DNA from: Nanobdellota archaeon
GTDB taxonomy: Archaea; Nanobdellota; Nanobdellia; Pacearchaeales; GW2011-AR1
DNA: 64,000 bases
Direction of reading: 5' to 3'
Assembly: GCA_027334715.1 (NCBI GenBank)
Contig: DAHWUG010000003.1
Span: 1-64,000 of the forward strand
A program made the translations under genes and the position numbers. Positions 1 through 1,828 of this stretch are shown one piece after another. Below the pieces are notes generated by a model. That model was not told the DNA's origin. It searched no databases and saw only the letters and a program-made list of their open reading frames with translations. The first letter of the stretch is position 1, and the number at the start of each line of letters is the position of its first letter.

Positions 1-1378
1 AATCCACAATTTCAAATTTCATTCCTGAAGCTTGTAATGATAATGGCATTTCTGATTTTCTAATGTCCAGTACGTCTTCTATCCATTGAAGGAAGGAATC
101 TGATCCAGAGCATCTGAATTGTGTTTTTAGTTCAAATTCAAAAATATTCTCTTTCGGAACACCTAGTTTTATGGCAGAATCTTTTATCAAGCTAACACTT
201 CCTATTTCATTGGGCCTGACAACCTGATTCTCATCTATGAAAAAGACCGATAATTTTGCTGGTTTTATGAGGTCATCAATCTGTGGATTTTTTGATTTAA
301 ATGCAGAGGGTACACCCCAATTATAACTATCTTTCCTTATCCTATGGGCTTCATCACATATTAAAACATTAATTTCATTTTCTTTCATTTGCGTAAAATT
401 GAAAAAGAATTTATAGAATTTTTCAGCTCTTTTACCAACCATTCTTCTAAGAGTTTTTGTAAATGCTGAAGATCCAGTAGCATGAAAAACTGGCTTACCA
501 GATCTCATAAGTTCACCCATAACTTCCAGTGCTATAACTGATTTACCTGTTCCAGGTCCACCCTTAACGATAATCACTGATTTATCATGTTGTTTAGTTT
601 GTTTTTTTGCCCTATCTATTATGGCATTGCGTGCAGCAATTTGGTCATCAATTAAGTTAAAAACTTGCTGTTTGTTTATCATATTCCCAACATGATCTAA
701 CAACATTTTAGATGGTCCTATCTCACTGTTGACAAAACGATTGAAAATTTGGAATCCTGGATCTTTTGATAGTTTCTCCCTAAGATATTCTCCTAACTTT
801 TTTACATCTTGTTTGGAAAATAATGGATACTCTTTAATTAATGATTTAAACTGCGAATTATATAAGACATCCTCTTCTTTTTTATTATAATTATGACAAT
901 ATGAGCATCCGATGAGATCTATTTTAGGTGTTTCTCTTAGAACCTTAATATAATCATTCATATCAATTATATATGCTTGAACCTGAGCACAAGGGTGTGC
1001 CTGTTGCCCCCAATGGTCACCATAGCTTACTTCAATATTTCCTTCTATGTCTATTTTCTTCAGACTATTATTTGACCATTGCTTTAATTCTATGACTATT
1101 ATTGTATCAACTCCATCTTTTGATCTTCCAAAGAGAATAACATCAATTCTTCTTTCAGAATAGGGAAGTCTGTACTCTATAACAATTTTATTTTGAGACA
1201 ACTCTGGAACATCTAAAGAATCTTTTAATACTCTTAAGGAAGTCTCCCAAGATCTATATTCTGAATCATTAACTTTTCTTTTAATTTTCTCCAAGAAATT
1301 TTTTGCTATAATATCTGCAATTTCATTATTTAGGACATCTTCCTTAAATTCTTGAATTGTCCCATCATATAATCTCAT
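1..1378 (-). CDS. PD-(D/E)XK nuclease + DUF2075-type (Schlafen-like) helicase, C-terminus outside window
   Basis: Open frame of about 459 codons running off the left edge without a stop, so the C-terminus is missing. The N-terminal part has a restriction-nuclease-like signature: D79 in RIDVILFG and E97-L-K99 in IVIELKQW, the D...ExK pattern of PD-(D/E)XK enzymes. A P-loop ATPase follows with Walker A GGPGTGKS (K279) and a Walker B/DEAH box VLICDEAHRI (D342, E343). The nuclease-like plus helicase order resembles DUF2075 / Schlafen group 3 proteins. The start lies two bases after the stop of the mazG-like gene, so the two are almost certainly co-transcribed. A role in nucleic-acid defence or RNA/DNA processing is inference; the domain reading is fairly firm. 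Confidence 0.85.
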   Translation of the reverse strand, partial: MRLYDGTIQEFKEDVLNNEIADIIAKNFLEKIKRKVNDSEYRSWETSLRVLKDSLDVPELSQNKIVIEYRLPYSERRIDVILFGRSKDGVDTIIVIELKQWSNNSLKKIDIEGNIEVSYGDHWGQQAHPCAQVQAYIIDMNDYIKVLRETPKIDLIGCSYCHNYNKKEEDVLYNSQFKSLIKEYPLFSKQDVKKLGEYLREKLSKDPGFQIFNRFVNSEIGPSKMLLDHVGNMINKQQVFNLIDDQIAARNAIIDRAKKQTKQHDKSVIIVKGGPGTGKSVIALEVMGELMRSGKPVFHATGSSAFTKTLRRMVGKRAEKFYKFFFNFTQMKENEINVLICDEAHRIRKDSYNWGVPSAFKSKNPQIDDLIKPAKLSVFFIDENQVVRPNEIGSVSLIKDSAIKLGVPKENIFEFELKTQFRCSGSDSFLQWIEDVLDIRKSEMPLSLQASGMKFEIVD

Positions 1379-1380
1379 TT

Positions 1381-1749
1381 TCAGAATTCATTATACTTTT
1401 TATTTGAACCTTTTGCTTTATCAATAGGGTATTTTTTAGAACTTTTTTCCATTTTTCTATCAAATGCTTCTGATAAATCAATATTATATCTTTGGGCTAA
1501 CCTGAATAAGAAATAAAGAACATCTGCCATTTCATCTTCTATGTCTTCTCTTTTCTTTGGGTCCTTAAACAATTCTTCAACTTCTTCTTTAGACTTAAAC
1601 CTAAATGGCTCAAGCAATTCTGATGCTTCTATACTTAATGCAATTGCCAAATCTTTAGCATTATGAAACTGGTCCCAGTCTCTTTCATCACAATATTTCT
1701 TGATGAATTCCTTAATTTCGTGTAGGCTTCTTTCGTGGTCTTTTGCCAT
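1381..1749 (-). CDS. MazG-like nucleotide pyrophosphohydrolase
   Basis: A 122-residue all-helical protein with the metal-binding pattern of MazG/RS21-C6 pyrophosphatases: E41xxE44 followed by E73xxD76 (EDEMADVLYF). Members hydrolyse (d)NTPs to the monophosphate and PPi, often as house-cleaning enzymes. It is the first gene of a two-gene minus-strand unit, with the nuclease-helicase starting two bases after its TGA stop. The pairing suggests that nucleotide cleavage and the helicase act together, for instance in phage defence, which is inference. Start chosen at the ATG preceding AKDHERS. Confidence 0.85.
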   Translation of the reverse strand: MAKDHERSLHEIKEFIKKYCDERDWDQFHNAKDLAIALSIEASELLEPFRFKSKEEVEELFKDPKKREDIEDEMADVLYFLFRLAQRYNIDLSEAFDRKMEKSSKKYPIDKAKGSNKKYNEF

Positions 1750-1828
1750 GGAAAACTAAATTTTTGGCCATTTATACACTTTTCCATTCTTCCCCAAACT
1801 TTAAATATTACTTTGCTCTAATTTAGTA

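What the first reader, a model, noticed from the sequence alone, without database searches (positions are those of the whole stretch)
1..1749. MazG plus nuclease-helicase pair at the left edge
A pyrophosphohydrolase precedes a PD-(D/E)XK + DUF2075-like helicase by two bases. Nucleotide hydrolases coupled to nuclease/helicase proteins are recurrent in antiviral loci. The domain combination suggests a two-component defence unit that depletes nucleotides or degrades invading nucleic acid.
Basis: partly seen in the sequence, partly recalled or inferred. Interest (0 to 1): 0.5.

Follow-up and report, generated by a model that had tools for sequence, protein, structure and literature searches.

The report
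MazG plus nuclease-helicase gene pair
At the broken end of a contig from a tiny archaeon sits a two-gene unit, a nucleotide-destroying enzyme next to a DNA-cutting helicase, that recurs and jumps between archaea, bacteria, plasmids and phages and is most likely an uncharacterised antiviral defence module.

Summary
On the minus strand, a 122-aa MazG-like pyrophosphohydrolase (1381-1749), closest in sequence to dCTP pyrophosphatase, is followed after two bases by a PD-(D/E)XK nuclease fused to a Schlafen-group-3 SF1 helicase (2-1378). The helicase is cut off by the contig end after 459 of about 620 residues, and its C-terminus was not found elsewhere in the assembly. The nuclease motif is invariant in 79 of 79 homologues, and the fold is confidently predicted (pLDDT 91). 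The pairing is not chance: in an unbiased phylum survey, MazG lies directly upstream of 14 of 15 other full helicases, yet only about 7% of genomes carry the helicase. Relatives are 50-58% identical between archaea and bacteria, and also occur on plasmids and phages. Neighbours are rich in defence genes. Some relatives carry a LexA-like S24 peptidase fused to the helicase, or an upstream TPR-HExxH metallopeptidase gene. No PADLOC model covers the pair and no paper found describes it. Best explanation: a mobile antiviral unit in which the helicase-nuclease attacks invader DNA and MazG removes dNTPs. Function is inferred, not shown; a repair/house-cleaning module is the main rival. In this genome no clear defence island is visible on the readable side.

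The parts
1381..1749 (-). MazG-like all-alpha NTP pyrophosphohydrolase, 122 aa, dCTP pyrophosphatase 1 (RS21-C6)-like over its whole length; first gene of the pair
   Evidence: PF12643 E 3e-18; RS21-C6 / dCTP pyrophosphatase 1 structures 2a3q and 6sqw E 2e-20, profile E 1.8e-28
1618..1629 (-). MazG metal-site motif E41xxE44
   Evidence: both Glu identical in 52 of 52 paired MazG proteins
1522..1533 (-). MazG metal-site motif E73xxD76
   Evidence: E73 and D76 identical in 52 of 52
1379..1380 (-). two-base spacer between MazG stop and helicase start
   Evidence: in relatives the spacing is most often -4 (overlapping ATGA) to +5
2..1378 (-). PD-(D/E)XK nuclease + SLFN-g3 (SF1) helicase, first 459 residues; C-terminus lost at the contig end
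   Evidence: PF09848 E 3e-37; AlphaFold model pLDDT 91
884..1378 (-). N-terminal PD-(D/E)XK nuclease domain (residues about 1-165)
   Evidence: alpha-beta-beta-beta-alpha-beta core in the model; weak NERD match
1082..1144 (-). nuclease motif D79 ... E97-L-K99
   Evidence: invariant in 79 of 79 homologues
971..985 (-). RecB-type QxxxY motif (Q132-Y136)
   Evidence: invariant in 79 of 79 homologues; family assignment of the motif from general knowledge
2..583 (-). helicase domain, first RecA-like lobe and start of the second
   Evidence: PF09848 match residues 266-459, profile positions 1-197 of 354
536..562 (-). Walker A GGPGTGKSV
341..355 (-). Walker B DEAHR
   Evidence: D342, E343, H345, R346 invariant in 79
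110..121 (-). helicase motif QFRC
1771..1776 (-). possible archaeal TATA box (TATAAA) 22-27 bases before the MazG ATG, which would serve both genes
   Evidence: direct reading of the sequence; inference, no test

Best explanation
It is a mobile two-gene antiviral (anti-mobile-element) unit. The second protein uses its SLFN11/RecD2-like SF1 helicase to travel along single-stranded or end-exposed DNA, such as replicating invader DNA, and cuts it with its N-terminal PD-(D/E)XK nuclease. The first, a dCTP-pyrophosphatase-like MazG, hydrolyses dCTP or modified pyrimidine dNTPs so that the invader cannot resynthesise or chemically protect its DNA. Shown here: domain content, intact catalytic motifs, predicted fold, recurrent tight pairing, mobility, defence-rich neighbourhood. 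Inferred: that the nuclease and MazG are active, their substrates, the trigger, the direction of translocation, and defence itself.
For: Pairing: MazG upstream on the same strand in 50 loci, divergent upstream in 8, downstream in 2, of 93 testable; usual spacing -4 to +5 bases; 14 of 15 other phylum helicases have MazG directly upstream. Catalysis: nuclease residues invariant in 79 of 79; MazG E41, E44, E73, D76 and K99 in 52 of 52. Fold: model pLDDT 91; structural neighbours are Dda-like DSH9, SLFN11, RecD2, Dda and Dna2; a full-length relative's best hits are SLFN11 E 2e-12 and RecD2 E 9e-11. Mobility: 3 of 56 near relatives and about 16 of 236 phylum genomes have it; archaeal and bacterial members interleave in the tree; found on plasmids and phages or viral contigs. 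Neighbourhood: nearby genes match 407 PADLOC models, genes more than about 5.5 kb away 48, 127 proteins each. Neighbours include type I R-M genes, a McrB-like (DUF3578) gene and an ABC-three-component gene on a Priestia plasmid, Dcm and Vsr-like genes and HNH_2 nucleases, PAPS reductase with DUF4007 and PDC-S41.
Against: No member has been tested. No PADLOC model covers the MazG, and the helicase matches only PDC-S41, AbiO and Nhi partially. In the window the readable neighbours are mostly housekeeping. MazG is missing beside about a third of the wider family, its presence changes at least 19 times on the tree, and MazG and helicase distances are uncorrelated outside Actinomycetota (r 0.03), so strict co-inheritance is not shown. 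The PADLOC contrast counts models, many of them redundant, not genes.
Confidence: 0.6

Rival explanations
1. Accessory DNA-repair or house-cleaning module: the nuclease-helicase processes damaged DNA ends (Dna2/RecBCD-like) while the DCTPP1-like MazG sanitises damaged or modified dCTP. Some relatives link it to an SOS-like response through a fused LexA/UmuD-type S24 domain.
For: Structural neighbours include Dna2, RecD and RecD2; MazG matches mammalian dCTP pyrophosphatase along its length, an enzyme known for sanitising modified dCTP (general knowledge); S24 domain at the C-terminus of some relatives; stand-alone MazG in housekeeping surroundings.
Against: Sporadic presence (about 7% of phylum genomes), archaea-bacteria transfer, occurrence on plasmids and phages and defence-gene neighbours are unusual for a repair system.
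Confidence: 0.2
2. Weapon or accessory of mobile elements (plasmid- or phage-borne competition, super-infection exclusion or element replication) rather than host defence.
For: Found on 26 plasmid records and 3 phage records and 7 viral contigs.
Against: Most hits are in genome assemblies of many phyla, with no replication or mobilisation gene recurrent beside it.
Confidence: 0.12
3. MazG has no functional link; it is a small passenger gene kept near a nuclease-helicase that works alone.
For: MazG absent beside about a third of the wider family, at least 19 changes on the tree, non-congruent distances.
Against: 14 of 15 in the phylum survey, with overlapping or near-overlapping frames; catalytic residues fully conserved in the paired MazGs.
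Confidence: 0.08

Closest known systems
SLFN-g3 helicases (PF09848, formerly DUF2075), including the helicase part of human SLFN11/SLFN14
   Same: Same helicase family by Pfam; SLFN11 is the best structural match of the full-length relative (E 2e-12).
   Different: The N-terminus is a PD-(D/E)XK nuclease, not the Schlafen RNase core; prokaryotic; paired with MazG.
PADLOC candidate PDC-S41
   Same: Similarity to both ends of the profile in relatives (89 bits for P0001); PDC-S41-type proteins (best E 9e-288) sit beside three of the loci.
   Different: Far below a family-level match for members of this unit (44-92 bits on a 657-position profile); a distinct co-occurring family.
AbiO and Nhi (phage-resistance helicase-nucleases)
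   Same: Helicase region matches with E about 1e-9 to 1e-16.
   Different: Only the helicase core aligns; neither model covers a MazG partner.
dCTP pyrophosphatase 1 / RS21-C6 (MazG-like)
   Same: End-to-end sequence match, profile E 1.8e-28.
   Different: Here encoded next to a nuclease-helicase and horizontally mobile; substrate untested.
MazG as a predicted defence domain (DefensePredictor, PMC13092281)
   Same: MazG is listed among predicted defence domains, and the paper says none of these nucleotide-modifying domains had been validated.
   Different: The text read does not name a nuclease-helicase partner.
Dna2 / RecB-type nuclease-helicases and SF1B helicases RecD2 and Dda
   Same: Nuclease plus SF1 helicase in one chain; structural hits; QxxxY motif.
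   Different: Different domain make-up and family; accessory rather than universal.

Membership tests
SLFN-g3 helicase (PF09848) | match above the Pfam gathering score | tested here: met
   129 bits against a cut-off of 24
SLFN-g3 helicase (PF09848) | complete helicase with motifs of both lobes | tested here: inconclusive
   Walker A, DEAH and QFRC present in the window; the second lobe is lost at the contig end but intact in relatives L003 and L012
PD-(D/E)XK nuclease | D...ExK catalytic triad on the alpha-beta-beta-beta-alpha-beta core | tested here: met
   D79, E97, K99 invariant in 79 of 79; core topology in the model
PD-(D/E)XK nuclease | nuclease activity | not testable with these tools
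   needs biochemistry
MazG-like NTP pyrophosphohydrolase (dCTP pyrophosphatase type) | family match and ExxE ... ExxD metal site | tested here: met
   PF12643 E 3e-18; E41, E44, E73, D76 in 52 of 52
MazG-like NTP pyrophosphohydrolase (dCTP pyrophosphatase type) | dCTP as substrate | not testable with these tools
   needs an enzyme assay
Nhi / AbiO | full-length family match | tested here: not met
   only the helicase core aligns, about 27-58 bits
PDC-S41 | full-length family match | tested here: not met
   44-92 bits on a 657-position profile, while true members reach E 9e-288
eukaryotic-type Schlafen | Schlafen core RNase domain | tested here: not met
   no Schlafen core match in Pfam; the N-terminus is PD-(D/E)XK
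anti-phage defence system | protects against phage | not testable with these tools
   only indirect evidence from distribution and neighbourhood

The most novel reading that the evidence does not exclude
A widespread, unnamed defence family built on a MazG plus a nuclease-SLFN11-type helicase, onto which two unrelated proteases have been grafted repeatedly: a LexA/UmuD-type S24 autopeptidase fused to the helicase, and a separate TPR-HExxH metallopeptidase encoded upstream. The proteases would sense infection or DNA damage and switch the nuclease on. The window's copy could be of either form, because its C-terminus and the genes beyond are missing.
Probability: 0.25. Interest if true: 0.75.

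Novelty: new variant of a known kind. Interest (0 to 1): 0.5.

Why it matters
If true, it adds a prokaryotic defence family that joins dNTP hydrolysis to DNA cleavage, is present in DPANN archaea where little defence is known, and shares its motor with the human antiviral factor SLFN11. The protease-bearing relatives make regulated activation of a nuclease-helicase directly testable.

Tried and rejected
A chance ORF pair was rejected (domain matches, invariant motifs, recurrent pairing). Joining the helicase to its missing C-terminus within the assembly found nothing. The idea that MazG and helicase are strictly co-inherited was not supported (Mantel r 0.03 outside Actinomycetota; short proteins near saturation may hide a signal); the overall r of 0.57 may largely reflect the Actinomycetota split. 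Membership in PDC-S41, AbiO, Nhi and eukaryotic-type Schlafen was rejected on partial matches. Paper searches for MazG with DUF2075, DUF2075 with phage and defense, and nucleotide pyrophosphohydrolase with anti-phage found no description of the pair; Burroughs 2015 is not held. The sigma-70 promoter and terminator scan gave nothing above shuffles, as expected for an archaeon. The DNA methylase seen in the window could not be placed by motif search.

Full report
OBSERVATION. Reading right to left on the minus strand, a 122-aa MazG-like protein (1381-1749) is followed after two bases by an open frame of at least 459 residues (2-1378) that runs off the contig. The window is the first 64 kb of contig C4 (73.8 kb) of a 588-kb, about 90% complete genome whose 16S matches the archaeal model over its full length (1292 bits). 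The archaeal relatives with the closest copies are Woesearchaeota- and Micrarchaeota-like, so it is probably a DPANN archaeon (inference). The lost C-terminus is not elsewhere in the assembly.

DOMAINS. The small protein is MazG-like (PF12643, E 3e-18), and its best solved relatives are RS21-C6 / dCTP pyrophosphatase 1 over the whole length. Metal-site residues E41, E44, E73 and D76, and K99, are identical in 52 of 52 paired copies. The large protein has an SLFN-g3 (DUF2075) helicase domain from residue 266 (E 3e-37). Its N-terminus gives only a weak NERD hit, but E68, R77, D79, E97-L-K99-Q-W101, Q132 and Y136 are invariant in 79 of 79 homologues. The model (pLDDT 91) shows two helices, three strands with D79 on the second and E97/K99 on the third, then a helix with QxxxY and a strand: the PD-(D/E)XK core. 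Fold searches place the motor with SF1 helicases of the RecD2/Dda type and with human SLFN11; SLFN11 is the top hit (E 2e-12) for the full-length relative L012.

IS THE PAIR REAL? Among loci fetched by helicase similarity alone, MazG lies within 700 bases upstream on the same strand in 50, upstream divergent in 8 and just downstream in 2, of 93 testable; about 6 more MazGs lie elsewhere in 1.6 Mb. Ten pairs overlap by 4 bases and most others are 1-30 bases apart. A survey of 236 genomes of the phylum, not selected for MazG, found 15 other genomes with a full helicase, and in 14 the MazG is directly upstream (one copy, L101, is frame-broken). The converse does not hold: equally good MazGs occur alone among housekeeping genes (L121, L125, L130).

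DISTRIBUTION. Only 3 of 56 near relatives and about 16 of 236 phylum genomes have the helicase. The nearest relatives of the window protein are bacterial (Omnitrophota, Doudnabacteria) as well as archaeal, 50-58% identical, and interleave on the tree. It also occurs on plasmids of Streptomyces, Hymenobacter, Priestia and Methanosphaera, in a Microcystis phage with its MazG and in viral contigs. This is the pattern of a horizontally mobile accessory unit.

NEIGHBOURHOOD. For 127 proteins close to the helicase, 407 PADLOC models match; for 127 proteins further than about 5.5 kb away in the same loci, 48. The measure counts models, which are redundant, so it is indicative only. Individual neighbours include an N-6 methylase with HsdS, a restriction endonuclease, a DUF3578 (McrB-like) protein and an ABC-three-component protein on the Priestia plasmid; Dcm with Vsr-like genes in five loci and an HNH_2-type family in six; PAPS reductase with DUF4007, a Dnd-like setting; and PDC-S41-type helicases. 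In the window itself the readable side is mostly housekeeping, apart from a DNA methylase and other PADLOC matches at unplaced positions. The other side is missing.

PROTEASE LINKS IN RELATIVES. Nine relatives have helicases of 770-841 residues. In the four scanned, the extra C-terminus matches Peptidase_S24 (E 2e-8 to 7e-4), and the alignment of all nine shows the GxSM serine, a downstream lysine and, in most, an A-G site as in LexA/UmuD. Separately, 11 loci have a related gene, close upstream in ten and about 10 kb away in one (L054): usually a TPR protein of about 650 residues, in three a 268-288-residue form without TPR, with an invariant HExxH; Pfam names only the TPR part. Both features are scattered over the tree. 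Nuclease-protease pairing in antiviral systems has been shown for other proteins (PMC12799240). Whether the window copy has either feature cannot be told.

MECHANISM. I judge a defence role most likely (0.6): the helicase-nuclease engages exposed or replicating invader DNA and cuts it, while MazG removes dCTP or modified dCTP. Catalytic integrity, pairing, mobility and context are shown; activities, substrates, trigger and protection are inferred. The main rival is an accessory repair/house-cleaning module (0.2), supported by the Dna2/RecD-like architecture, the sanitising role of mammalian dCTP pyrophosphatase and the LexA-like domains. Against tight partnership stand the absence of MazG beside about a third of the wider family, at least 19 changes of its presence on the tree, and uncorrelated distances outside Actinomycetota.

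KNOWN OR NEW. PADLOC-DB 2023 has no model for the pair; only partial helicase matches to PDC-S41, AbiO and Nhi were found. DefensePredictor lists MazG among predicted defence domains and states that none of these had been validated. Paper searches found no description of MazG with this helicase, though most subscription papers and preprints are not held. I therefore call it a new variant of a known kind (helicase-nuclease defence), with the family-wide protease links as the most novel reading.

Noticed in passing
L011, L013, L024, L025, L026, L027, L029, L034, L039 (C-terminal 150-200 residues of the helicase): C-terminal Peptidase_S24 (LexA/UmuD-type) extension on the nuclease-helicase: Pfam match in the four scanned, catalytic Ser and Lys visible in the alignment of all nine.
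   Followed up: partly
L014:559-2574, L009:2629-4644, L031:2263-4236, L045:5776-7767, L064:7717-9642; short forms L033, L035, L091: Upstream gene with an invariant HExxH metallopeptidase motif, most copies with N-terminal TPRs; Pfam does not name the metallopeptidase part.
   Followed up: partly
neighbour proteins of alignment A3; L013:3954-5927 and L038:3944-6007 score with the helicase profile: Three neighbour proteins match PDC-S41, the best with E 9e-288; second SLFN-g3-type helicases lie beside the unit.
   Followed up: no
L024, L041, L042, L048, L052, L085: A family of about 310 aa lies near the unit in six loci; the two members scanned (L042, L048) are HNH_2 endonucleases.
   Followed up: no
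L101:1150-1503: The MazG copy beside this helicase is frame-broken.
   Followed up: no
window, position not resolved: One protein matches an N6_N4 DNA methylase (Pfam E 7e-41, PADLOC MTase_II E 5e-93), one a REase_II model and two mad2 models.
   Followed up: partly
window, position not resolved: A RuBisCO large chain (E 1e-80) is encoded in this small archaeal genome.
   Followed up: no
window:18542-20514: By sequence, two HhH-GPD-type DNA glycosylase-like genes (Ogg- and endonuclease III-like) next to a likely DNA alkylation repair gene; the families are in the window, the placement is by eye.
   Followed up: no
window:1829-2164: Divergent gene next to MazG encodes a small membrane protein with a very histidine-rich N-terminus and no Pfam match.
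   Followed up: no
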